DNA from: Streptomyces sp. NBC_01314
Lineage (GTDB): Bacteria; Actinomycetota; Actinomycetes; Streptomycetales; Streptomycetaceae
DNA: 64,000 nt
Assembly (NCBI RefSeq): GCF_041435215.1
Contig: NZ_CP108394.1
Location: 5,580,001-5,644,000, forward strand
Reading direction: 5' to 3'
The translations under genes and the position numbers were made by a program. How positions within the stretch are numbered: position 1 is the first letter of the stretch; each line of letters starts with the position of its first letter. The notes beneath the pieces are model-generated. The model was not told the DNA's origin. It worked only from the letters and a program-made list of their open reading frames with translations, and ran no database searches. Positions 7,317 through 24,234 of the stretch are shown one piece after another.

Positions 7317-8336
7317 ATGTCGCAAGGATTCTCGCAACAGCGGAGACCGAACCCGCCGGTTCCGCATCGGGTCGCGGTGGTCGTGGACGAGTCCACGAAC
7401 CCGTTCGAGGTCGGTGTGGCGACCGAGCTGTTCGGGCTGCCGCGGCCCGAACTGGGGCTGCCGGGGCCGCTGTACGAGGTGACGCTGTGCACCCCCGGGC
7501 CCGAGGTCCGGATGAACCACGGGTTCTTCACCATGACCGGGGTGGCGGGGCTCGACGCCGTCGACGACGCGGACACCCTCGTCGTACCGGGCCGGCCGGA
7601 CAACGTCGTGCCGCGCGGTGCCGCCGTGCTCGACGCCATCCGGCGCACCCACGCGCGCGGGGCGCGGATCGTGAGCTTCTGCACCGGCACCTTCGCGCTG
7701 GCCGAGGCCGGAGTGCTCGACGGGCGCCGGGCCACCACCCACTGGCGCTGGGCAGAGGCGTTCCAGGAGCTGCATCCGAAGGTCCGGCTCGAACCGGACG
7801 TGCTCTACGTCGACGAGGGCGACCTGTTGAGCTCCGCCGGCAGCGCGGCCTCGCTCGACCTGGGGCTGCACATCTGGCGCCGGGACCACGGCGCGGAGCT
7901 CGCCAACACGGTGAGCCGTCGGCTGGTGTTCGCCGCCCATCGTGACGGCGGGCAGCGGCAGTTCGTGGAGCGGCCCGTTCCGCACATACCGGACGAGTCC
8001 CTCGGCCCTGTGCTGGCATGGGCGCAGGAGCGGCTCGACGCACCGCTCACCGTCGCGGACCTCGCCGCCCGCGCGGCCGTGTCGCCCGCCACCCTGCACC
8101 GCCGTTTCCGCGCTCAGCTCGGCACGACGCCCCTGGCCTGGCTCATCGGGGAGCGCGTGACCCTGGCCCGGCGGCTCATCGAACGCGGCGAGGAACGTCT
8201 GAACGTGGTCGCCGAGCGCAGCGGCCTCGGGACCGCGGCGAACCTGCGCGCGCGGTTGCGCCAGGAGACCGGACTGAGCCCTTCGGCCTACAGACGACGT
8301 TTCGGAACGGGCCCCGGGGAACGCCTGAAGGTATGA
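7317..8336 (+). CDS. GlxA family transcriptional regulator
   Basis: A 339-residue regulator with an N-terminal DJ-1/PfpI-like domain (residues ~15-190; nucleophile-elbow motif SFCTGTFALAEAG) and a C-terminal AraC-type double helix-turn-helix (residues ~235-330; VADLAARAAVSPATLHRRFR, then GLGTAANLRARLRQETGLSP and AYRRRF). The DJ-1-like part usually serves as a sensor rather than an enzyme in this family. The TGA overlaps the ATG of the next gene (ATGA), so the two are translationally coupled. It likely controls itself and the divergent cupin gene. Confidence 0.9.
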   Translation: MSQGFSQQRRPNPPVPHRVAVVVDESTNPFEVGVATELFGLPRPELGLPGPLYEVTLCTPGPEVRMNHGFFTMTGVAGLDAVDDADTLVVPGRPDNVVPRGAAVLDAIRRTHARGARIVSFCTGTFALAEAGVLDGRRATTHWRWAEAFQELHPKVRLEPDVLYVDEGDLLSSAGSAASLDLGLHIWRRDHGAELANTVSRRLVFAAHRDGGQRQFVERPVPHIPDESLGPVLAWAQERLDAPLTVADLAARAAVSPATLHRRFRAQLGTTPLAWLIGERVTLARRLIERGEERLNVVAERSGLGTAANLRARLRQETGLSPSAYRRRFGTGPGERLKV

Positions 8337-8824
8337 GATTCCTCGTGCGCGACCGGCTCCTCGGCATCGGTGACGACTACTGGATCGAGGACGAACACGG
8401 CAGAAAAGCCTTCCTCGTCGACGGCAAGGCCATGCGGCTGCGGGACACCTTCGAGCTGAAGGACACCCGGGGGCAGGTCCTGATCGACATCCGCCGCAAG
8501 ATGTTCGCCCTGCGCGACACCATGGTCGTCGAACGGAACGGCGAGCCCCTGGCCACCGTCCGCCGCAAACGCCTGTCCCTCCTGCGCAATCACTACCGGG
8601 TCTCTTTGGCGGAGGGCACCGAACTCGACGTCAGCGGCAAGATCCTCGACCGTGAGTTCGTCATCGAGTACGACGGCGAACTCCTGGCGCACATCTCCCG
8701 CCGATGGCTGCGGGTCCGCGAGACCTACGGCCTCGACGTCGTACGCGACGACGCGGACCCGGCGCTGCTGATCGCCGTGACGGTGTGCGTGATCAATCTG
8801 GCGGAGAAGGAGCGGGACGACTGA
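8333..8824 (+). CDS. LURP-one-related family protein
   Basis: A 163-residue protein of the LURP-one-related (DUF567, tubby-like) fold. It shows repeated beta-strand pairs with the family wording YWIEDEHGRKAFLVDGKAM, LRDTFELKDTRGQVLIDIR and KMFALRDTMVVERNG. No catalytic residues are known for the family; the eukaryotic relatives are thought to bind membrane lipids. The ATG overlaps the stop of the GlxA-type regulator, so expression is tied to it. The 3-prime end faces the accessory operon at 8834. Confidence 0.8.
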   Translation: MRFLVRDRLLGIGDDYWIEDEHGRKAFLVDGKAMRLRDTFELKDTRGQVLIDIRRKMFALRDTMVVERNGEPLATVRRKRLSLLRNHYRVSLAEGTELDVSGKILDREFVIEYDGELLAHISRRWLRVRETYGLDVVRDDADPALLIAVTVCVINLAEKERDD

Positions 8825-8833
8825 GACCACTCG

Positions 8834-9820
8834 TCAGGTCGCCAGGTGCTCCACGAAAATCCCGATGAGAACACGGTCGTCCTGCTCGGCGAGCGGCAGG
8901 GAGAAGTGCACCCGGTCGCGGTCCCACAGGCGCTTGCCGTGCCACTCGCAGCGGTAGGCCGCGTCGCCGTGGACCACCTTGCGCTGCTCCCACGCCTTCG
9001 CGTTCTTCTTCGTGTTCGGGCTCTCGGGGGAGATGTCCAGACCCAGGGCGGAGAATCTGGCCATGACCTGGTTCTGGTCGCCACCGCAGTCGGTCAGGGT
9101 ACGGCTGAAGTGGTCGTTGAGCGCTCCGAGCAGCTTCACCAGCCAGGGCAGGACCTCGTCGTAGGAGCCCTTGAAGTGGTGCAGACGCAGCGTCTCCGCG
9201 AAGAGCAGCCGCGGAAAGGCGTCCTCGGTGAGGGTGAAGAAGTGCTCGGCCGGGACGGGCTCGTGGGTGAACAGGCCTCGCCAGAAGTCCGGCGCGTCCT
9301 CCGGTGAGCGCAGCACATGCGCCTTCACCTCGTCCTGGCCCGTCTCCGTCGTCCGTGTGACGGTGACCCATCCGGACGGCCAGTCGGGCTCCTTGGCGTA
9401 GGGCGCGAGGAGACAGGACATGGCCCGGCCTTCCGCTGCTCTGGCCAGGGCGTGTGCCGTGCCCCAGGACGGTTCGCGCCAGGGACCGTCGGCCAGACGG
9501 ACGGGCTGCGGCAGGTCCGCCTCGTCGGGATCCACCCGCTTGCACTTGCCCAGCAGCGTCTGCAGACGGGCCCGCGTGTCACGGGGCAGTCCGCCGTCCG
9601 GCGAGTACAGGGCGTCGATCAGCGAGACCGAGGGCCGGCACTCGACGTCGTAGGCCGCGTTCATGAACGCGGCCTTGCGGCCGTCGGCCAGTGGCTCCAA
9701 TAACTTCGCGAGCGTGGCGAGGGCCTCGGGCAGATCGGCGTCCGCCAGCTCCCGCCAGTCGAAGGACTCCTCACCGACGACTACGCGGTAGTCGTCGGCG
9801 TCACCTGCTGCGTCCGGCAC
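8834..9820 (-). CDS. Unrecognised protein, last gene of DUF262/ATPase operon
   Basis: A 328-residue soluble protein with no family I can name. It has no signal peptide or membrane segment. The closing ~50 residues look most conserved in style: YRCEWHGKRLWDRDRVHF then GIFVEHLAT, a Cys/His/Lys/Arg-rich patch that could be catalytic or nucleic-acid binding. Two further Cys lie at CRPSVS and GRAMSCLLAP. The GTG at 9820 is chosen because a GGGGAGG Shine-Dalgarno sequence lies seven bases before it; a longer frame from GTG 9865 is possible but has no such site. The start lies 20 bases inside the ATPase gene, so the two proteins are probably made together and act together. Defence or toxin function is inference from context. 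Confidence 0.7.
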   Translation of the reverse strand: MPDAAGDADDYRVVVGEESFDWRELADADLPEALATLAKLLEPLADGRKAAFMNAAYDVECRPSVSLIDALYSPDGGLPRDTRARLQTLLGKCKRVDPDEADLPQPVRLADGPWREPSWGTAHALARAAEGRAMSCLLAPYAKEPDWPSGWVTVTRTTETGQDEVKAHVLRSPEDAPDFWRGLFTHEPVPAEHFFTLTEDAFPRLLFAETLRLHHFKGSYDEVLPWLVKLLGALNDHFSRTLTDCGGDQNQVMARFSALGLDISPESPNTKKNAKAWEQRKVVHGDAAYRCEWHGKRLWDRDRVHFSLPLAEQDDRVLIGIFVEHLAT

Positions 9821-10910
9821 GGGCCAGCCTCCCCAGGTCGGTCTCGATCTGGTCGAAGAAGCCACTCGGCCAGTGGCTGAGTTCGCCCTTGTCGTTGATG
9901 GCGATGGGCAGGGTCCGGTCGTGGTCGAAGTAGTGCGTGATCATGTCCTTCGCCGGGAGGGAGCGGTCCTGGGCGACGGCGAGCCGGGCTCCGTTGAGGA
10001 CATGGTCGCTGTGCGTCTCGACCAGGACCTGTACCCCGCTGCCCGCCACGCGCGCGAGGAAGCGGCCCAGCCGGGACTGCCCCGCCGGGTGCAGATGCGC
10101 CTCCGGGTTCTCCACGATCAGCAGGTCGCCCGGCTCGGTGAGCAGACCGGCGACGATGACGGGAAGGGCGTAGGAGACACCGAAACCGGTGTTGGCGGGG
10201 CGGATCTCCTCACCGCTCAGGCCCGTCTCGCCGAACCGGATGGTCCCGGCCAGGATGCCGACGGCCACCCGTGCGGTGATCCGCAGCGGACGGATGATCT
10301 CCGAGGCCCAGGCCTCGGCATGCACCCTCAGCTGTGGACCGGTCGCCTCCGGGTGGCGCAGGGGAACGCGGACCTTCGTCCGGGTGCCGACGGCTCGCGA
10401 CTCGCGCAGCGCGAGGACCTGTGCCGTGAACTCACCGCGTACCCCGACGCCGATGCGGTCGGGTTCGTCGGCGGACACCGACAGGGTGTCGCGCGGGCCG
10501 AGGCGTTCCGCACAGAGGTAGGTGAAGGCAGGGTCCACGACACCCGGTCCGATACCGGGTACGACGGCCACGGGCGACCGCCGTACGTCCAGGTGCAGGG
10601 CTTGTTCGGTGTCGGGCAGGCCGAACCCGAACACCCATGATTCACCGGCCGGGCCGCCCAGTCGTACGGTGATCTCCCGTGTGTCAGCCGTCCAGTTCAG
10701 CACGTCGCGGGCCTCGCCGAGGGCCAGACCGAGGGGGCCGTTCAGCCGGACGGTGCCGCTGGAGAGGGACGCCAGCCGCGCCAGCAGCAGAGACTGGATC
10801 GCGGTGCTCTTGCCACCGCCGTTGACACCGGTCAGGACGGTCAGGGGGCGTAGCTCGAACGACTCCGACTCGAAGCGCTTGAAGCCCCGGATCTCCAGAG
10901 AAGTGATCAC
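9801..10910 (-). CDS. AAA family ATPase, DUF3696/OLD-like
   Basis: A 369-residue ABC/SMC-type ATPase. The start TSLEIRGFKRFES is the usual RecF/OLD-like N-terminus; Walker A is GVNGGGKST (residues 28-36); Walker B is DLLIVENPEAHLHPAGQSRL; the switch His is in VETHSDHVLNGARLA. The end, NDKGELSHWPSGFFDQIETD, matches the C-terminal DUF3696 motif. No TOPRIM domain is present, unlike GajA/OLD nucleases. The ATG overlaps the DUF262 stop by four bases and the stop overlaps the next gene. Such ATPases commonly power or sense in phage-defence operons; that role here is inferred. Confidence 0.85.
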   Translation of the reverse strand: MITSLEIRGFKRFESESFELRPLTVLTGVNGGGKSTAIQSLLLARLASLSSGTVRLNGPLGLALGEARDVLNWTADTREITVRLGGPAGESWVFGFGLPDTEQALHLDVRRSPVAVVPGIGPGVVDPAFTYLCAERLGPRDTLSVSADEPDRIGVGVRGEFTAQVLALRESRAVGTRTKVRVPLRHPEATGPQLRVHAEAWASEIIRPLRITARVAVGILAGTIRFGETGLSGEEIRPANTGFGVSYALPVIVAGLLTEPGDLLIVENPEAHLHPAGQSRLGRFLARVAGSGVQVLVETHSDHVLNGARLAVAQDRSLPAKDMITHYFDHDRTLPIAINDKGELSHWPSGFFDQIETDLGRLARAGRSR

Positions 10911-12085
10911 CGGCCGGCTCCGGCGTCCGCGACGGCGGCCTTGAAGCGGTAGTCGACGCGATGACGGTCGGCGGTGGAGGAGGTGATGGCGTTGAGGTAG
11001 GTGACGTCAGTGGTCATCCGCTCCCGCGCGGCCTGCACGATCGCCTTCCGGCGCGTTCGCAGATCGGCGGTGGTGTGGTCGGGATCGGCCAGGGCGAGCG
11101 ACCAGCTCTCGAACATGGCTCGGTTGATCGGACGACGGTAGTCGTCGCCCTTCGGCCACTTGCGGAAGGCGTGCTCCCCGAAGACCAGGTAGGCATGGGT
11201 CATCGCCCGGTCGAAGGCGGCCTCCAGCGCCGCCACCCGCTCGTCGGGGACCTGCTTCGGATCGTCGAGCATCTCGGTGGCGTCCATCAGGAACAGCTCC
11301 ATCATGGGCCGCTCCTGGTAGGCCTCGATGTCCTTCAGCCAGAACGCGGCGAACCGCAGCGCCATCTCCCGGTCGTTCATCCGGATGTGGTTGGTCAGGC
11401 GGCCCCCGGTGGCCTTGGCGAAGGCGTCCGTGTGCGTCATCCGGTGCAGGATGTCCCTGCTGCGCGGACTGCTCATGCAGTGTCGGATCTCCTGCGCGTT
11501 CAGCGGGGTCCCACCGGTGTTGATCCGCTTGAAGATCTCGTATGTCACTCCGCGCGGTGTCGTCGGATCGATCACGTTGACGATCAACTGGGTGTTGTTG
11601 ATCCGCCGCTGGAACGGCACGGGGAGATCGGTGAAACGCAGGTCTTTCAGGTCTCTCAGATGCTCCAGCTTCCCGAGGGCGAAGCCGTTCTCGCCGCCCC
11701 GGACGAACGCGTGCAGCGTGGAGAGCCGCTGAAGGCCGTCGACGACCCGGAACGACCCGTCCGCATCCTCCGCGAAGTAGAACGCGGGCAGCGGGATCTG
11801 GAGCAGCAGGGACTCGATGAGCAGGGACTTCTGGTCGGCGCGCCAGACCTGGAGACGCTGGAAGTCCGGAGCGAGTTCGATGGAGCCCTCGTCGATCTGG
11901 TCGAGGATGTTGCGCAGGGAGAACTGGCTGGTGTTCACCCGGATCTGGTCGGGGTTCCACGGCCGTTGGATCCGCTCGGTCTCCTCACCGGGGTCCTCGA
12001 CCTCGATGTCAGTGGCGTGTCCCTCGAACACGTCCTCCACCACGTCCGGAGTCGTCTGCGCGCCATCCATAGCCATGCGGGCCAT
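10907..12085 (-). CDS. DUF262 domain protein (ParB/GmrS-like)
   Basis: A 392-residue protein with an N-terminal DUF262 (ParB/Srx-like) domain: ELAPDFQRLQVWRADQKSLL, LLQIPLPAFYFAED and the nucleotide-binding motif FRVVDGLQRLSTLHAF (DGLQR in place of the commoner DGQQR). Residues ~150-200 give TYEIFKRINTGGTPLNAQEI, also typical. The C-terminal half is helical and I see no DUF1524 HNH motif, so it is not a fused GmrSD enzyme. ATG 12085 is one base after the preceding stop; a GTG at 12136 in the same frame would overlap that gene. It is tightly coupled to the ATPase gene downstream. Confidence 0.85.
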   Translation of the reverse strand: MARMAMDGAQTTPDVVEDVFEGHATDIEVEDPGEETERIQRPWNPDQIRVNTSQFSLRNILDQIDEGSIELAPDFQRLQVWRADQKSLLIESLLLQIPLPAFYFAEDADGSFRVVDGLQRLSTLHAFVRGGENGFALGKLEHLRDLKDLRFTDLPVPFQRRINNTQLIVNVIDPTTPRGVTYEIFKRINTGGTPLNAQEIRHCMSSPRSRDILHRMTHTDAFAKATGGRLTNHIRMNDREMALRFAAFWLKDIEAYQERPMMELFLMDATEMLDDPKQVPDERVAALEAAFDRAMTHAYLVFGEHAFRKWPKGDDYRRPINRAMFESWSLALADPDHTTADLRTRRKAIVQAARERMTTDVTYLNAITSSTADRHRVDYRFKAAVADAGAGR

Positions 12086-12086
12086 C

Positions 12087-12341
12087 CTAGGGGCGGGTGA
12101 TCGAGCGGATGGAGGAGTTGTACCCATCGCCTCCACCCGGCTCGGGTGTGGGATCGCACCGGTCGGCGGCGATCCTGAGGACCTCCGCCAGGGACTCGAC
12201 CAGACGGCGGGCGATCCAGCGCAGTTGGTCGGCCGTGAGACATGCGTCGTCGTGCACCATCGGCCGCGCGAGGCCCAGGACGACGGCCGCCGATTCGAGT
12301 TGCCGCTGCTGAGGGTCGGGCGGGCGCGGCTCGTCGGTCAT
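12087..12341 (-). CDS. Small helical protein of unknown function
   Basis: An 84-residue acidic N-terminus/amphipathic-helix protein (QLESAAVVLGLARPMVHDDA, LTADQLRWIARRLVESLAEVL) ending in a Gly/Ser-rich tail. I do not recognise a family. Its ATG overlaps the stop of the anti-sigma-type ATPase gene (ATGA), and its TAG is one base before the DUF262 start. That spacing ties the regulatory-looking ATPase to the DUF262/ATPase genes. A role as an adaptor or binding partner is possible but not shown by sequence. Confidence 0.6.
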   Translation of the reverse strand: MTDEPRPPDPQQRQLESAAVVLGLARPMVHDDACLTADQLRWIARRLVESLAEVLRIAADRCDPTPEPGGGDGYNSSIRSITRP

Positions 12342-12781
12342 GGCGCCGCCATGCGCCGTACGGGCAGGTCCACGGGCAGGTCGAACCACACCGCCTTGCC
12401 CACCGGGTGCGTCGGGCCGCCGTACGGGATGTCCGGGCCGTGCCCCCAGTGGCCCTCGGTAAGGGCGTCCACCAGATACAGCCCACGGCCGCCACCGCAC
12501 TCCCACGTCCGTGCCGTCAGTTCCCTTGTCACCGGCGGGTTCTCGTCCCCGTCGTACACCACCACCCGGAGCCGTCCCTCCTCCACGGCCAGCCACAGCA
12601 CGGTGCCGTCACCGCCCTTGGCGTGCACACAGGCGTTGGTGACGAGTTCGGAGGTACAGAGGATGGCGTCGTCGACGAGGGTGCGGTCCAGGCGCAGCGT
12701 GTGCAGGACGGTGGCGACGAAGTCGCGGGCGATGTGGGGGGTGGTTTCGAGGGGTGGGCAAATGAGGGTGTACGAGGGCAT
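12338..12781 (-). CDS. Anti-sigma-type ATP-binding protein (HATPase_c_2)
   Basis: A 147-residue single-domain GHKL ATPase of the RsbW/SpoIIAB type abundant in Streptomyces. The N box is CTSELVTNACVHA, followed by VVVYDGDENPP (G1 region) and GGGRGLYLVDALTEG (G2). No response-regulator or phosphatase domain is attached. Proteins of this kind usually bind a sigma factor or anti-sigma antagonist, or pair with WhiJ-like regulators. It heads a minus-strand run of overlapping genes and lies next to the XRE-DUF5753/DUF397 pair, so it may belong to both units. Confidence 0.85.
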   Translation of the reverse strand: MPSYTLICPPLETTPHIARDFVATVLHTLRLDRTLVDDAILCTSELVTNACVHAKGGDGTVLWLAVEEGRLRVVVYDGDENPPVTRELTARTWECGGGRGLYLVDALTEGHWGHGPDIPYGGPTHPVGKAVWFDLPVDLPVRRMAAP

Positions 12782-13013
12782 GGGGCATCAACTCCGGTGA
12801 GGGGTGAGGGGCTTGCACGCCTCTGTCCGCGTTGCTGTCCGGCGCCCCGGTGTCGATGGTCGGGGTGGCGCTTCCAACGTGGGGAGGGCGTGCGGGAGTT
12901 GCGGATGAGTGACCAAATGGGCACCCTCCGTGAGGTACGTTACGACGCTAGCGGAGCAAGTTGCGCCGCATCAACTTGTTCCGCAAATCGGAGCGGATCG
13001 TGAGGAGGACGGC

Positions 13014-13859
13014 ATGCCCCCGAGGCTCAACCCCACAGCGCGCCAAGCGCGACTCGGAGCAGAACTGCGCAAGTTGCGCGAGGCCGCAGGCGTATCGAAC
13101 CGGGAGACCGCCGAGTTCCTGAACACCAGCCCGACCCAGATCAGCCACATTGAAGCGGGGCGCTCCGGGATCAGCCCGGAGCGGCTGCGTCGACTCACCA
13201 CCTTGTACGCCTGCGACGAAGCACAACTCGTGGACGTACTGTCCGAGATGGCGGCTGATCGCGGTAAAGGCTGGTGGGAGGAGTACCGCGGAGTCCTGTT
13301 GCCCGGGGCACTAGACCTCGCCGAACTGGAGCATCACGCCTCGTACATCAATCTGTTCGAAGCCGTGCACATCCCCGGGATTCTTCAGACCGAAGACCAT
13401 GTGCGCGCAGCCTCGACCTTCGTGGCCCCAGACCTACCCGAGAGCGACCGTGAAGCCCGGGTCTCGTTCCGCATGAGACGCCAGGAGGTTCTCGATTCGG
13501 GCACGCCTCTCGACGTGATCATTCATGAAGCCGCGCTGCGCATGCGCGTCGGAGGTCCCGGAGTCGCCCGCGCACAGCTCCAACACATCCTCAAGGCCGC
13601 CGAACGGGAGAACATCTCCCTGCGCGTGATCCCGTTCCAGGCCGACGGCTTCGCAGGGGCTGGTTTTCCCATGCAGTACGTTGGCGGAGTCGTCCCGCAG
13701 TTGGACACCGTGCAGACCGATACACCGCACGGCGTGGTTTTCATCGACGCTTCAGCCCAACTGCGTTATTACCGGAGCCAACTGGAGCGCGTTGACAGCG
13801 CCGCACTCCCACAAGACGCTTCCCTCGACCTCATCCGCCGTATCACGCAAGAGCTGTGA
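13014..13859 (+). CDS. XRE family regulator with DUF5753
   Basis: A 281-residue WhiJ-type protein. Residues ~10-65 form an XRE helix-turn-helix (RQARLGAELRKLREAAGVSN, SPTQISHIEAGRSGISPERL). Residues ~95-275 are the DUF5753 sensor-like domain (VHIPGILQTEDHVRAA, FRMRRQEVLD, IHEAALRMRVGGP, RVIPFQADG). The ATG at 13014 is favoured by an AGGAGG sequence five bases upstream; an in-frame ATG at 12909 lacks one. It is followed at 10 bp by a DUF397 gene, its usual partner. Confidence 0.9.
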   Translation: MPPRLNPTARQARLGAELRKLREAAGVSNRETAEFLNTSPTQISHIEAGRSGISPERLRRLTTLYACDEAQLVDVLSEMAADRGKGWWEEYRGVLLPGALDLAELEHHASYINLFEAVHIPGILQTEDHVRAASTFVAPDLPESDREARVSFRMRRQEVLDSGTPLDVIIHEAALRMRVGGPGVARAQLQHILKAAERENISLRVIPFQADGFAGAGFPMQYVGGVVPQLDTVQTDTPHGVVFIDASAQLRYYRSQLERVDSAALPQDASLDLIRRITQEL

Positions 13860-13869
13860 AAGGTTGCCG

Positions 13870-14073
13870 ATGTCCTCCACACCCCGCTGGCAGAAGTCGT
13901 CGTTCTCCGGAGGCGCGGAGAACACGTCCTGCGTGGAGATAGCCACCGCCCCCACCACCCTCCACCTACGAGAGAGCGACACTCCGGCCACGATCCTGTC
14001 GCCCACCCCCGTCGCCCTCCACGCACTACTCACCACTCTGCGCAACGGCCCCCGAACCGCACCGCAGGGCTGA
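13870..14073 (+). CDS. DUF397 domain protein
   Basis: A 67-residue DUF397 protein: RWQKSSFSGGAENTSCVEIA is the family signature and LLTTLRNG the ending. DUF397 proteins are small partners of XRE-DUF5753 regulators in Streptomyces, where they are thought to counteract or bind the regulator. Shine-Dalgarno GAAAGG sits six bases from the ATG, and the gene follows the XRE gene at 10 bp. Confidence 0.85.
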   Translation: MSSTPRWQKSSFSGGAENTSCVEIATAPTTLHLRESDTPATILSPTPVALHALLTTLRNGPRTAPQG

Positions 14074-14080
14074 ACCCAGC

Positions 14081-14899
14081 TCAACGACGCGGTGGCTCCA
14101 GTCCCAGCAGCCTGTCCTTCAGGGCCGGGAACTGCTCACGCGTGGCCGCCACCCTCGTCGGATCGAGCTCCACCGTGAGGACCTCCTCGTCGCGGCCCGC
14201 CTCCGCCAGCACCTCGCCCCAGGGGTCGACCACGATCGAGTGACCGGCCTGGGGAACTCCCGCGTGCGTACCGGCCGTTCCACAGGCGAGTACATAGGCC
14301 TGGTTCTCCACGGCCCGCGCCTGCGCCAGCAGTGTCCAGTGCGACCGCCGCCGCTCCGGCCACCCCGCCGACAGCACGAACATCTCGGCGCCGGCGTCGA
14401 CGAGCCCGCGGAACAGCTCGGGGAAGCGGAGGTCGTAGCAGGTGGCGATGCCGATGGTCGTGTCGGGCAGGCGGAGCGTCACCAGTTCCGAGCCCGCGCC
14501 CATCAGCACGGCCTCGCCCTTGTCGAAGCCGAAGCGGTGGATCTTGCGGTAGGCGGCGGCGAGGTCGCCGGACGGTGAGAAGACGAGGGAGGTGTTGTAG
14601 AGAGAGCCGTCACCCGCGGCGGAGCCGCTGCCGGAGGCAGCGCGCTCGGGGATCGAGCCCGCGTGCAGCCACACGCCCGCGTCGCTCGCCGCCTTGGCCA
14701 TCGCCTCGTACGTCGGCCCCTGCAGCGGTTCGGCCGCCTCCGCGAAGGATTCGTACGCGAACGCGCCGGTGGTCCAGAGCTCCGGAAGTACGACGAGATC
14801 GGCGCCGGCCTGGCCCCGTACCAGCGAGGCCACGCGCCGCCTGCGCGAATCAACCGATTCGTCCTCATCTACACCGATCTGGATGAGCGAGGCGCGCAC
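14081..14899 (-). CDS. Carbon-nitrogen hydrolase (nitrilase/omega-amidase-like)
   Basis: A 272-residue nitrilase-superfamily amidohydrolase. The Glu-Lys-Cys triad is visible as VVLPELWTTGAF, AYRKIHRFGFDKGE and GIATCYDLRFPELFR. The sequence resembles the branch containing omega-amidase and NIT proteins, which hydrolyse small amides such as 2-oxoglutaramate or deaminated glutathione; the true substrate is uncertain. GTG at 14899 fits the family start (VRASLIQIGVDEDES) with AGGAC upstream; an ATG at 14950 would add 17 unlike residues. It is convergent with the DUF397 gene. Confidence 0.88.
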   Translation of the reverse strand: MRASLIQIGVDEDESVDSRRRRVASLVRGQAGADLVVLPELWTTGAFAYESFAEAAEPLQGPTYEAMAKAASDAGVWLHAGSIPERAASGSGSAAGDGSLYNTSLVFSPSGDLAAAYRKIHRFGFDKGEAVLMGAGSELVTLRLPDTTIGIATCYDLRFPELFRGLVDAGAEMFVLSAGWPERRRSHWTLLAQARAVENQAYVLACGTAGTHAGVPQAGHSIVVDPWGEVLAEAGRDEEVLTVELDPTRVAATREQFPALKDRLLGLEPPRR

Positions 14900-15129
14900 A
14901 CTACCACCGTCCTGGCATTCGAGACGTCCACTCCGGCCTACGATCGTCACACCAAAGCACTGCCGGGGTGCCTCACAGCAGCGTAACTTAACGTCTCAGA
15001 ACACCCACTGACAGCCGCCGACGCCCACTCACCGCCGTCAACGCCGACGCCCCTACCGAAACCCGCCACCCACATACTGATACGCATCGACCGTACTGAC
15101 AGGTACCGACCGCCCGAGGGGTCCCGTTC

Positions 15130-20094: not shown

Positions 20095-20286
20095 TCAGCC
20101 CCGAGTCCGCCCCACATGGTTGGCAAACGATGCCCACGCCCTTGGCGTGAGCCGGAGTATCGGCCCGTCCGGGTCCTTGGAGTCCCGGACGGCGACGGCG
20201 CCGGGGATGTTGCGGGCGACTTCGACGCACTCGCCGTGCGCATCGCCGCTGCTGTACGTAGACCTCGTGAACTCGAACCCGGGCAT
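20095..20286 (-). CDS. DUF397 domain protein
   Basis: A 63-residue DUF397 protein (FTRSTYSSGDAHGECVEVAR, then VRDSKDPDGPILRLTPRAW, both typical). It starts 6 bases after the XRE-DUF5753 stop, repeating the regulator-DUF397 order seen at 13014-14073. It ends at the bidirectional hairpin. Confidence 0.88.
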   Translation of the reverse strand: MPGFEFTRSTYSSGDAHGECVEVARNIPGAVAVRDSKDPDGPILRLTPRAWASFANHVGRTRG

Positions 20287-20292
20287 GTCGGC

Positions 20293-21171
20293 CTACATCT
20301 CCTTGCGGATGCTGTCGATGAAGCTGAGGGATTCATGCCGCGCCATCCCCAGCTGGGTGAGGCGATCGAAGATCGCGTTGTGGCGCGCGGCATCAGTTTC
20401 ACTCTCCAGCCAGACCTTCGTCGAGACGGTATCCGCCTGTACGAGGTCCAGGGCACCCGGCTCGGCGAAGGAAACCACAGTGAAGGCACTGGTCATCCCC
20501 GGGTGGGCACCCGCGAAGAACGGGACGATCTGCACCCGCACGTTGGGTAGTTGCGCCGTTCCGAGGAGGTGGTCCAACTGGGAACGCATCACGTCTCGCC
20601 CGCCGACCCACTGCCGCAGCGCCCCCTCATGCAGCATCACCCAGAGCTGCACCGGGCGCTCACCGGTCAGCCGCGCCTTGCGAGCCATCCTCGCCTCGAC
20701 AAAGGACTCGATTTCACCGGCGTCTTCCCAGGTTCCGTTACCCACCGCGAGGGCCCGAGCATAGTCCGGCGTCTGCAAGAGGCCCGGGACAAAGGTGAGT
20801 TGCCAGGTCCGTAGCTCTGTGGCGATGTCCTCCAAGGCGACGTACTCCATCTGCGCCTTCAGCTGGGGGTATTGGTTCCACCAACCCTGGACCCTGCGTC
20901 GGTCTCGGTCGGCCTTCGCGATGGCCAGCAGCCTACCGATCACCAACTCGTCCTTCTCGCCGTACAGATGGCAAAGTGCCCTGACGTCAGGATCCCGCAA
21001 CGGCACTTGGCCGCGCTCTATCTTCGCGACCTTCGTGACGGACGCCGTCAGCGCCTCGGCAGCATGCGCTTGGCGCAATGAGCACGCCTCACGCATGCGT
21101 AGCAGCTCTCCGCCAAGCCTGCGCCCCAGGACGGTTGTGACAGTCCGCCCACGGTCAGGGTTGTTGCCCAT
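20293..21171 (-). CDS. XRE family regulator with DUF5753
   Basis: A 292-residue WhiJ-type regulator. XRE helix-turn-helix at residues ~15-70 (GGELLRMREACSLRQAHAAE, TASVTKVAKIERGQVPLRDP), DUF5753 from ~105 (TFVPGLLQTPDYARAL, VEARMARKARLTGERPVQLW, LHEGALRQWVGG, VQIVPFFAGAHPG). GGAAGGA lies eight bases before the ATG. A DUF397 gene follows and an anti-sigma-type ATPase gene is divergent, making the second complete WhiJ-like set in the window. Confidence 0.9.
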   Translation of the reverse strand: MGNNPDRGRTVTTVLGRRLGGELLRMREACSLRQAHAAEALTASVTKVAKIERGQVPLRDPDVRALCHLYGEKDELVIGRLLAIAKADRDRRRVQGWWNQYPQLKAQMEYVALEDIATELRTWQLTFVPGLLQTPDYARALAVGNGTWEDAGEIESFVEARMARKARLTGERPVQLWVMLHEGALRQWVGGRDVMRSQLDHLLGTAQLPNVRVQIVPFFAGAHPGMTSAFTVVSFAEPGALDLVQADTVSTKVWLESETDAARHNAIFDRLTQLGMARHESLSFIDSIRKEM

Positions 21172-21428
21172 GCAGCGATCCTTCCAGCTGAGTGACCCCA
21201 GTCTGTAGGTCCTCGGAGCACCTCACAATCTTGGCAGGGATTTTTCTGCCACGTTCGATTGCTGCCGAAGCTCGCTCGGCGCTACGGTCGGTATCCGGTC
21301 GCCCACTCAGTGACACCAGTTGGCGGAAGGCACCGTACTGCCCAAGCCAGGGCCTGGACGGCAGAGCCACCACCCCACCCACCTGGTCACCGCCACGGGC
21401 ACCCGGTAATGCACAAGGAGGTGCGCCC

Positions 21429-21872
21429 ATGACCGATTCCTGTCCTCCCCCCTTCAACCGGCCCAAGGCCCACGAACGCTACGACGCCGTCAGCTACGCC
21501 CCCACCCCGGGCAACATCCCCGCCGCCCGCAGGCACGTCGCCCAACTCGCCGTCGACTGGGGCCATCCCGGCGCAGCCGGCGACGCGGCGCTACTCGCGA
21601 GCGAGCTGTGCACCAACGCTCTGCTGCACGGGCGCCTGCGGGACCGGCTGTTCCGCGTGGAGACGTCCCTGAACGGCAACGCGCTGCGCGTCGCCGTCAC
21701 CGATCCGAGGGGTGAACGGCTGCCGGAGGCCCGCACAGCGGAGGACAGCGACCAGTCCGGGCGCGGGCTGCTCATCATCCGCGCCCTCGCCAGCCGCTGG
21801 GCCGTCGAGAAGCTCACCGTGGGCAAGAGGATCTGGGCGGAGCTGGACGTTCCGGGAGGAGCGGATGCGTAG
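21429..21872 (+). CDS. Anti-sigma-type ATP-binding protein (HATPase_c_2)
   Basis: A 147-residue GHKL single-domain ATPase. N box is ASELCTNALLHG, the G1 region VAVTDPRGERLP, and the G2 region GRGLLIIRALASRWAV. AAGGAG lies eight bases before the ATG, a strong ribosome site. It is a paralogue in type of the protein at 12338-12781 but differs widely in sequence. It is divergent from the XRE-DUF5753 gene and may bind an anti-sigma antagonist or that regulator. Confidence 0.87.
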   Translation: MTDSCPPPFNRPKAHERYDAVSYAPTPGNIPAARRHVAQLAVDWGHPGAAGDAALLASELCTNALLHGRLRDRLFRVETSLNGNALRVAVTDPRGERLPEARTAEDSDQSGRGLLIIRALASRWAVEKLTVGKRIWAELDVPGGADA

Positions 21873-23217: not shown

Positions 23218-23245
23218 TCCTCCGCCCTACGTTCCGGGGCGGAGG
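23218..23245 (+). promoter_or_regulatory. Hairpin covering the Bro-N gene ribosome site
   Basis: CCTCCGCCC pairs with GGGGCGGAGG, eight bases before ATG 23254. The right arm contains the GGAGG Shine-Dalgarno sequence, so the fold would hide it. This could be translational control or a terminator remnant. Confidence 0.4.
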
Positions 23246-23253
23246 TGGTTCAC

Positions 23254-24234
23254 ATGATCGAACCCAGCATGCACCAACCCGACCCGCGCACGCAGCAGGA
23301 TGCGCTCGACGTCGGCGACTTCGTCTACGCGGCCACCGGAGCCCGCGTCCGCCGACTGACCATGCCTGACGGGACGCACTGGTTCCCGGCGGTGGATGTC
23401 TGCAAGCAGTTGGGACACACCAACTCTCGGCAGGCACTCTCCGACCATGTTCCAGAGGAGCACCGAGAGATTATTGAGACCGTAACTGGAGCTTACGGTC
23501 TCAGCATTCCCGCAGGTAGAGAGTGGCGTCGAGACCTGAATCTCATCGACCTCCAGGGGCTGATCCTTCTCGTCAGCGCCTGCACCAAAGCCGAATGCGC
23601 ACCGTTCAAACAGTGGGTCGCCCAGGTCATCGAGACCATTCAGCGAGAGGGCTCCTACACGCTGGAGGAGGCCGAGGTACAGCCCACCGGGCCGGGCACC
23701 CCCGTCGCCTACGCCATGCCCGAACAGGTCGCCGAGGCCATCGTCCGGCTCGAAGAGCGCAACCTTCAGGCGGACGAGCAGCATGCAGTCGCACAGCACA
23801 AGTCACTCGCTCTGCAACAGGACACACTGGAGACCCAGCGCACCATGCTGGAGACACAGCGCGCCACACTCGCCGCCCAACAAGCCATCGCCCAGGCCAT
23901 GGAACGCATCGCGAACAGGCTCGACACCCTCGCGCTCGACCGGCCGGCACCCGCCCCCGAGTTCTCGACGCAGCCGACCACGGAGTCCGTGCTGGCCGAC
24001 TGGCGGAAGCGGTTGTCGGTGACGGAGGACGTGTGGACGGTGGCCGTGGTGATCGCCCCGGTGCTCGTCGAGGAGGGCGAGTTGCGTCAGCCACTGGAGG
24101 CGATCGCGGCCCGTACGGGGCTGTCGGTGCACCGCGTCAACGAATGTATGCGGATGCTGCGCAAGCACGCCTGCATCCATCCCCAGGGGGCGACGGTGGA
24201 AGGGGCACCGGTGTATGTGCTCAGCCCACGCTGA
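23254..24234 (+). CDS. Bro-N domain antirepressor-like protein
   Basis: A 326-residue protein. Residues ~25-130 form a BRO/prophage antirepressor N-terminal domain (VRRLTMPDGTHWFPAVDVCK, SDHVPEEHREIIETV, LQGLILLVSACTKAECAPFK). A coiled-coil-like Gln/Thr repeat follows (LALQQDTLETQRTMLETQRA, TLAAQQAIAQAMERI), then a C-terminal winged-helix-like region (LEAIAARTGLSVHRVNECMR). Bro-N proteins bind DNA and occur in phages and in chromosomal islands of Streptomyces; target and trigger are unknown. GGAGG with 8-base spacing fixes the start. It lies downstream of a toxin-antitoxin pair and a decayed copy of itself. Confidence 0.85.
   Translation: MIEPSMHQPDPRTQQDALDVGDFVYAATGARVRRLTMPDGTHWFPAVDVCKQLGHTNSRQALSDHVPEEHREIIETVTGAYGLSIPAGREWRRDLNLIDLQGLILLVSACTKAECAPFKQWVAQVIETIQREGSYTLEEAEVQPTGPGTPVAYAMPEQVAEAIVRLEERNLQADEQHAVAQHKSLALQQDTLETQRTMLETQRATLAAQQAIAQAMERIANRLDTLALDRPAPAPEFSTQPTTESVLADWRKRLSVTEDVWTVAVVIAPVLVEEGELRQPLEAIAARTGLSVHRVNECMRMLRKHACIHPQGATVEGAPVYVLSPR

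What the first reader, a model, noticed from the sequence alone, without database searches (positions are those of the whole stretch)
8834..12781. Five-gene coupled operon: anti-sigma ATPase, small protein, DUF262, DUF3696 AAA ATPase, unknown
Seen: all five genes are on the minus strand and overlap or touch (4-bp, 1-bp gap, 4-bp and 20-bp junctions). Known: DUF262 proteins and DUF3696-type ATPases occur in phage-defence systems; I recall, unchecked, that the three-gene Menshen family has a similar make-up. Inference: a defence module whose distinctive feature is an RsbW-type ATPase and small partner at its head. The site, between housekeeping genes near the origin and next to an XRE/DUF397 pair, is typical of an accessory insertion.
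Basis: partly seen in the sequence, partly recalled or inferred. Interest (0 to 1): 0.8.

Follow-up and report, generated by a model that had tools for sequence, protein, structure and literature searches.

The report
Phage-defence genes behind a developmental switch
Three of the five genes are a known bacterial anti-virus system (Menshen) with its own promoter-like start, and the two in front belong to a separate Streptomyces regulatory gene set that has become attached to it and can be lost without it.

Summary
In detail: five minus-strand genes with overlapping or touching ends. The last three (12076-8834) match Menshen NsnA, NsnB and NsnC over full length in PADLOC. The first (12338-12781) is an AbaA-type HATPase; with the divergent XRE (WhiJ-type) and DUF397 (BldB-type) genes it forms the known WhiJ-BldB-AbaA cassette, and the 84-aa gene goes with it. 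The block is an insertion: 53 of 55 genus loci read at this site have none of it. The two parts separate: two genomes have the cassette in this region without Menshen; five of the eleven closest Menshen loci lack the cassette; in one draft genome XRE, HATPase and small gene are broken while NsnA-B-C are intact. NsnA carries a conserved start signature, TA[GC]GAT-N6/7-ATG (27 of 32 loci), suggesting a leaderless promoter; the small gene's stop codon lies in it. Yet XRE/DUF397 pairs lie within 3.5 kb of Menshen in 8 of 33 loci (11 with hand reading) against 0 of 40 other defence loci, with different AbaA subfamilies. Reading: two autonomous modules docked together; the switch may add regulated read-through but is not shown to be needed.

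The parts
13870..14073 (+). DUF397 protein (BldB paralogue), second gene of the divergent regulatory pair
   Evidence: Pfam DUF397 9e-12; 3' end 7 bp from the nitrilase-family gene's 3' end (14081)
13014..13859 (+). XRE-HTH plus DUF5753 regulator (WhiJ paralogue)
   Evidence: Pfam DUF5753 5e-46, HTH_31 2e-15; 78% to L165 but 67% and 65% to L021 and L022; dS 0.97-1.28 to six relatives
12951..12984 (.). 13-bp-arm palindrome 30-63 bp before the XRE start, candidate XRE operator
   Evidence: L165, with the closest XRE, has a similar palindrome; L021 has a different one; none was found in L162 (XRE 76%)
12907..12926 (.). 20-bp dyad GRGTG...CACYC between XRE and HATPase, candidate regulatory site
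   Evidence: matched in 7 of 19 cassettes examined (win, L023, L026, L181, L182, L158, L162)
12338..12781 (-). AbaA-type HATPase (anti-sigma-like fold)
   Evidence: HATPase_c_2 1e-8; 84% and 87% to the L181 and L182 cassettes, which have no Menshen
12087..12341 (-). 84-aa small gene, follows AbaA with ATGA overlap
   Evidence: 12 clusters in the homologue search, its own included; no family above cut-off; omega 0.36-0.42; a shorter open version (about 67 aa) in L181 without Menshen; broken, shortened or absent in L026, L023, L028
12084..12089 (-). TAGGAT, putative -10 box of a leaderless promoter for nsnA, 7 bp before the ATG at 12076; contains the small gene's TAG stop
   Evidence: TA[GC]GAT-N6/7-ATG in 27 of 32 loci; 2 of 507 other called genes; only match in the window
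10907..12076 (-). NsnA (DUF262/GmrSD_N), Menshen
   Evidence: PADLOC NsnA 9e-120; VDGLQR seen in the sequence (one position off the (I/V)DGQQR motif quoted in PMC10952713)
9801..10910 (-). NsnB (ABC/OLD-like ATPase with DUF3696), Menshen
   Evidence: PADLOC NsnB 3e-102; GVNGGGKST and IVENPEAH seen in the sequence (Walker-type motifs, recalled)
8834..9820 (-). NsnC, Menshen, probable effector
   Evidence: PADLOC NsnC PDLC03914 2e-123; its C-terminal part matches further NsnC models; no significant PDB sequence match (best E 0.028)

Best explanation
Two autonomous modules are docked in one block. Module 1 is the Streptomyces WhiJ-BldB-AbaA cassette: the XRE regulator and DUF397 protein read away from the AbaA-type HATPase, followed here by a small gene. 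Module 2 is Menshen (NsnA, NsnB, NsnC), with its own conserved leaderless-type promoter signature at the NsnA start. Likely working (inferred): Menshen is expressed from its own promoter at a basal level; NsnA (DUF262 NTPase) and NsnB (ABC/OLD-type ATPase) sense infection and license NsnC, the effector. The XRE protein acts at operators between it and abaA; when the cassette is on, transcription can read through abaA and the small gene into nsnA-B-C, adding regulated expression. Shown: gene content, family membership, separability, the NsnA start signature, decay of the head with intact Menshen, recurrent proximity. Inferred: promoter activity, read-through, defence activity, any regulatory benefit.
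For: Menshen: full-length PADLOC hits to all three proteins; NsnA, NsnB and NsnC all found by blastp in 30 of 33 related loci, in this order in the maps. Cassette: XRE/DUF397//HATPase as described for whiJ-bldB-abaA (PMC10294661); 24 XRE//HATPase cassettes, the window's own included, in 36 own-genome stretches. Insertion: 53 of 55 genus loci with the backbone lack the block; nitrilase-LURP gap 2-556 bp in 54 of 58 loci. Separable: cassette without Menshen in G366 (L182) and G182 (L181); Menshen without AbaA in L024, L025, L027, L029, L034. Own start: TA[GC]GAT-N6/7-ATG in 27 of 32 loci, with or without AbaA, against 2 of 507 other genes; 30 motif matches (N5-8) in the 33 loci in all against 4, 2 and 4 in simulations. 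Head decay: L026 XRE 2 stops, HATPase 1 stop, small gene split; L028 small gene absent; L044 only the C-terminal part of XRE. Recurrence: 8 of 33 (automatic) or 11 of 33 (three added by hand) against 0 of 40 within 3.5 kb; AbaAs of L044, L049, L051 form a separate clade.
Against: In intact copies the head is tightly coupled to Menshen (ATGA overlap; small-gene stop next to nsnA), which can be read as one operon. The promoter reading is from sequence alone: no -35 box was recognised and the consensus scan found no promoter. Decay of L026 is seen in one draft assembly; sequencing error is not excluded. The recurrence test weakens with a 10-kb window (clustered p 0.02-0.06), and broken pairs were read by hand on the Menshen side only. 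AbaA-type HATPases without a pair also lie within 4 kb of 3 of 40 control loci.
Confidence: 0.65

Rival explanations
1. One five-gene defence system: the AbaA HATPase and small protein are working parts (sensor, regulator or brake) of this Menshen variant.
For: Tight junctions; all five genes read without stops at the same site in L021 and L022; AbaA lies next to Menshen genes again in L044, L049 and L051.
Against: Five close Menshen relatives (70-79% NsnC) lack AbaA; the head is broken in L026, the small gene absent in L028 and shortened in L023, with NsnA-B-C free of stops; cassette without Menshen in L181 and L182.
Confidence: 0.1
2. Chance neighbours: two accessory modules landed in the same permissive region and have no functional tie.
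For: A different gene (905-aa protein with a C-terminal HATPase-like part) sits in the same gap in L070; about 40 DUF397 genes in this genome make chance meetings possible; head decay; the block lies at two positions in the region, which fits an insertion-prone stretch.
Against: From the DUF397 density about 4% of loci would have one within 3.5 kb by chance, against 8-11 of 33; 0 of 40 control defence loci; different AbaA subfamilies involved.
Confidence: 0.21

Closest known systems
Menshen (NsnA-NsnB-NsnC)
   Same: Three genes, order, families; full-length PADLOC NsnA/NsnB/NsnC matches
   Different: Joined to an AbaA-small-gene head and a divergent XRE/DUF397 pair; no Pfam family found in NsnC. 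Li et al. 2025 (gkaf357) on Menshen polymorphism is known to me only from reference lists; it is not held and was not read
WhiJ-BldB-AbaA paralogue cassettes of Streptomyces (PMC10294661)
   Same: XRE gene with DUF397 gene, divergent from an HATPase gene; dyads between them
   Different: Here the abaA operon runs on into a defence system; the WhiJ9 repeat CGNNCTCAAC is absent from the intergenic region
Cassettes on Streptomyces phages Picard and Darolandstone
   Same: Picard: DUF397-XRE divergent from an AbaA homologue that overlaps a further gene. Darolandstone: same layout by annotation (XRE, a 72-aa gene, a 'histidine kinase' and an overlapping gene)
   Different: The overlapping gene is one unknown 159-160-aa protein; no NsnC match in the phage collection

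Membership tests
Menshen | NsnA with DUF262 | tested here: met
   PADLOC NsnA 9e-120; Pfam GmrSD_N 2e-24
Menshen | NsnB ATPase with DUF3696 | tested here: met
   PADLOC NsnB 3e-102; DUF3696 5e-9
Menshen | NsnC gene in the same operon | tested here: met
   PADLOC NsnC 2e-123; 40 of 40 alignment members match the same model
Menshen | OLD-type nuclease/TOPRIM domain reported for the system (PMC10952713, passages) | tested here: inconclusive
   No Pfam hit in NsnC; NsnB matches an OLD-family chain weakly (3e-5); structure prediction not available
Menshen | Phage resistance | not testable with these tools
   Needs plating
WhiJ-BldB-AbaA cassette | XRE regulator with adjacent DUF397 gene | tested here: met
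WhiJ-BldB-AbaA cassette | HATPase_c gene next to the pair | tested here: met
   Divergent, 232 bp apart
WhiJ-BldB-AbaA cassette | WhiJ9-type direct repeats CGNNCTCAAC between the divergent genes (reported for one paralogue) | tested here: not met
   No match with up to 1 mismatch in 12782-13013; other dyads found. The repeat is reported for WhiJ9 only, so this does not exclude membership
WhiJ-BldB-AbaA cassette | Up-regulation of abaA when bldB is lost | not testable with these tools
   Needs RNA data

The most novel reading that the evidence does not exclude
WhiJ-BldB-AbaA cassettes are portable expression heads that dock onto conflict cargo. They put immunity genes (Menshen here), phage-borne genes (gp27 of Picard) and perhaps host inhibitors such as iosA under the BldB developmental network, so loss of BldB or entry into development would raise Menshen expression; phages carrying their own copies could interfere with it.
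Probability: 0.17. Interest if true: 0.75.

Novelty: new variant of a known kind. Interest (0 to 1): 0.42.

Why it matters
What the many WhiJ-BldB-AbaA copies in Streptomyces do is an open question, and how defence systems are regulated in multicellular bacteria is little known. A block in which such a cassette runs straight into a Menshen system, recurring with other AbaA subfamilies, makes a link between development and immunity directly testable. The conserved NsnA start signature is also of practical use: it says where to start the gene and suggests that Menshen can work alone.

Tried and rejected
Rejected: that AbaA and the small gene are old residents of the site into which Menshen alone was inserted; 53 of 55 genus loci have neither, though two genomes have the cassette alone, so the order of assembly (gain or loss of Menshen) stays open. 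Rejected: the small gene as a conserved Menshen partner. Considered: XRE/DUF397 as toxin-antitoxin; fourteen S. coelicolor pairs did not behave so (PMC10364602, abstract and passages). Tried: a general rule that AbaA cassettes head defence genes. I sent to PADLOC the genes downstream of 7 of the 24 own-genome cassettes; 2 matched candidate models (Uma2 PDC-S03 4e-17, ATPase PDC-S27 5e-20), none a characterised system, so not supported. NsnC: no match in the phage collection; C-terminal matches only on 4 plasmid records. Literature: search listings showed me no paper on a WhiJ/BldB/AbaA link to Menshen; Li et al. 2025 and, by the DOI I recalled, Millman et al. 2022 are not held, so it may be in print there. 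A related precedent: DUF397 genes linked to about 4% of VMAP-ternary conflict systems (PMC7159879, passages). Other papers seen as passages only: PMC10952713, PMC2701414, PMC10117723 (no BldB, WhiJ or AbaA in it; no defence system consistently changed on infection but for one gene); PMC12704722 and PMC12839542 in their reference lists only.
Full report
OBSERVATION. The five frames and their junctions are as described. Pfam, PADLOC and NCBIfam give HATPase_c_2 for the first gene, nothing above cut-off for the second, and full-length Menshen NsnA (9e-120), NsnB (3e-102) and NsnC (2e-123) for the last three. The divergent pair at 13014-14073 is XRE-DUF5753 and DUF397.

TWO KNOWN KINDS. XRE (WhiJ), DUF397 (BldB) and HATPase (AbaA) genes sit together as paralogous sets in Streptomyces; in S. 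venezuelae, loss of BldB raises all five abaA paralogues and iosA, and WhiJ9 binds between whiJ9 and iosA (PMC10294661: abstract, outline, passages and one section read). The own genome has 46 DUF397 matches, about 40 genes by my count after joining split ones. In the 36 stretches fetched around them there are 24 divergent XRE//HATPase cassettes, the window's own included.

SITE. The block lies between the 3' ends of two convergent genes, a nitrilase-family gene (14081-14950) and a LURP-one-related gene (8333-8824). The nitrilase-family gene was found in 350 of 392 genus genomes. I fetched regions for 60 of these, from the upper part of the listing but skipping some. The gap is 2-556 bp in 54 of 58 loci measured. 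The block sits in this gap in the window, L021 (S. stelliscabiei) and L022 (MNU76), and a few genes away, between a cupin gene and the M18 peptidase, in L026 and L028, probably also in L023 (one side cut by the contig end). dS to L021, L022, L023 and L026 is 0.16-0.44 for AbaA, 0.13-0.50 for the Nsn genes and 0.08-0.50 for flanking genes, which fits mostly vertical residence. It is not uniform: NsnA against L022 (0.50) and NsnB against L021 (0.34) exceed the flanks of those pairs (0.14-0.30 and 0.08-0.23), so some exchange is likely.

SEPARABILITY. NsnC relatives: 8 of 392 genus genomes, the own included, and 33 loci in named genomes. Among the 11 closest (NsnC 70% or more, window included) six have the AbaA head, all in this region, and five (L024, L025, L027, L029, L034) have none in the stretch held. 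AbaA relatives: G366 (L182) has DUF397-XRE//AbaA (87%) next to the LURP gene with no small gene and no Menshen; G182 (L181) has DUF397-XRE//AbaA (84%) plus a shorter open small gene (about 67 aa) and no Menshen. Both contigs begin at the DUF397 gene. L024 has a small-gene-like stretch before nsnA without AbaA. Decay: L026 has 2 stops in XRE, 1 in HATPase and a split small gene; L022 and L028 lack the first 28 and 19 XRE residues; L028 has no small gene, L023 a shortened one; in L044 only a C-terminal part of XRE and a weak DUF397-like stretch with 1 stop are seen. In all of these NsnA-B-C read without stops. These are draft assemblies in part; sequencing error is not excluded for single cases. 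The small gene shows moderate constraint (omega 0.42 and 0.36 against L021 and L022, like AbaA with 0.39 and 0.35).

OWN START. Before nsnA, TA[GC]GAT-N6/7-ATG is found in 27 of 32 loci (L025 has TAGAAT; L048, L050, L052 and L053 lack it at that spacing; in L031 and L045 the ATG lies a few codons inside the aligned start). In the 33 loci the motif with N5-8 occurs 30 times in all on both strands; three first-order Markov simulations gave 4, 2 and 4; 2 of 507 other called genes have it. In the window it occurs once. The TAG stop of the small gene is part of the TAGGAT. I read this as the -10 box of a leaderless promoter (inference; no -35 recognised; the consensus promoter scan found nothing).

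RECURRENCE. An XRE/DUF397 pair lies within 3.5 kb of Menshen in 8 of 33 loci by the automatic count (L021, L022, L026, L028, L042, L047, L048, L049) and in 11 when L023 (DUF397 cut by the contig end), L044 (broken pair) and L051 (Menshen itself cut) are read by hand. Of 40 other defence loci (20 DUF262, 13 OLD-TOPRIM, 7 PglZ, chosen by me from the stronger hits) none has a pair within 5 kb and 3 have one within 10 kb. Fisher p: 0.001 (8/33 against 0/40) and 0.0015 after clustering NsnB at 85% (5 of 17), but 0.04 for 5 of 17 against the 3 of 40 at 10 kb; with the hand-read loci 5e-5 and 3e-4. Limits: the controls were not hand-read for broken pairs; three controls (L208, L215, L217) are under 13 kb and their midpoint stood in for the marker; some Menshen loci are short too. 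AbaA-type HATPases without a pair lie within 4 kb of 3 of 40 controls (L192, L214, L228), so HATPase proximity alone says less. The AbaAs of L044, L049 and L051 form a supported clade (96/99) away from the window's, and L048's stands apart; I infer more than one origin of the association.

REGULATOR SWAP. The window's XRE is 67% and 65% identical to those of L021 and L022, its nearest neighbours in the NsnA-B-C tree, and 78% to L165 of another cassette; L021 and L022 share 92%. XRE dS is 0.97-1.28 to six relatives where AbaA is 0.16-0.44; DUF397 is raised too (0.52-0.59 where measured). The palindrome next to the XRE start is similar to that of L165 and differs from L021's; L162, with a 76% XRE, showed none. 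I infer that regulator and operator were probably exchanged together, which marks the palindrome as the likely XRE site.

PHAGES. tblastn finds AbaA homologues (E 1e-6) in 3 and XRE homologues (E 1e-15) in 8 of 50,697 phage records, all Streptomyces phages. Picard carries DUF397-XRE divergent from AbaA, which overlaps a 160-aa gene (gp27), in the stretch between endolysin and serine integrase genes. Mojorita has XRE and AbaA matches at the same spacing (region not read). Darolandstone has the layout by annotation. gp27 and its Darolandstone counterpart have no Pfam or PADLOC match.

VERDICT. A Menshen system already covered by PADLOC, docked to a WhiJ-BldB-AbaA cassette. The docking is real and recurrent; dependence is not shown, and the decay data speak against it.

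Noticed in passing
20095-21872: A second DUF397-XRE//HATPase cassette lies 6 kb from the first; a Bro-N protein follows at 23245-24234.
   Followed up: partly
L230:3561-5806: Streptomyces phage Picard carries a DUF397-XRE//AbaA cassette with an overlapping unknown gene, near its integrase; Darolandstone has the layout by annotation and Mojorita has XRE and AbaA matches.
   Followed up: partly
12951-13859: The XRE gene and probably the palindrome next to it have been exchanged relative to the neighbours in the NsnA-B-C tree.
   Followed up: partly
L070:1875-4592: A 905-aa protein ending in a HATPase-like part occupies the same nitrilase-LURP gap in another Streptomyces; it looks SpoIIE/PP2C-like to me (name recalled, no family search).
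   Followed up: no
own genome C1 8.07-8.11 Mb (L134): Two XRE/DUF397 pairs lie within about 35 kb of a PglZ match and a DUF262 match, a possible further defence island.
   Followed up: no
L141:6540-8242 and L042:10962-12501: A distant relative of the small gene lies divergently next to XRE/DUF397 in the place where AbaA often stands.
   Followed up: no
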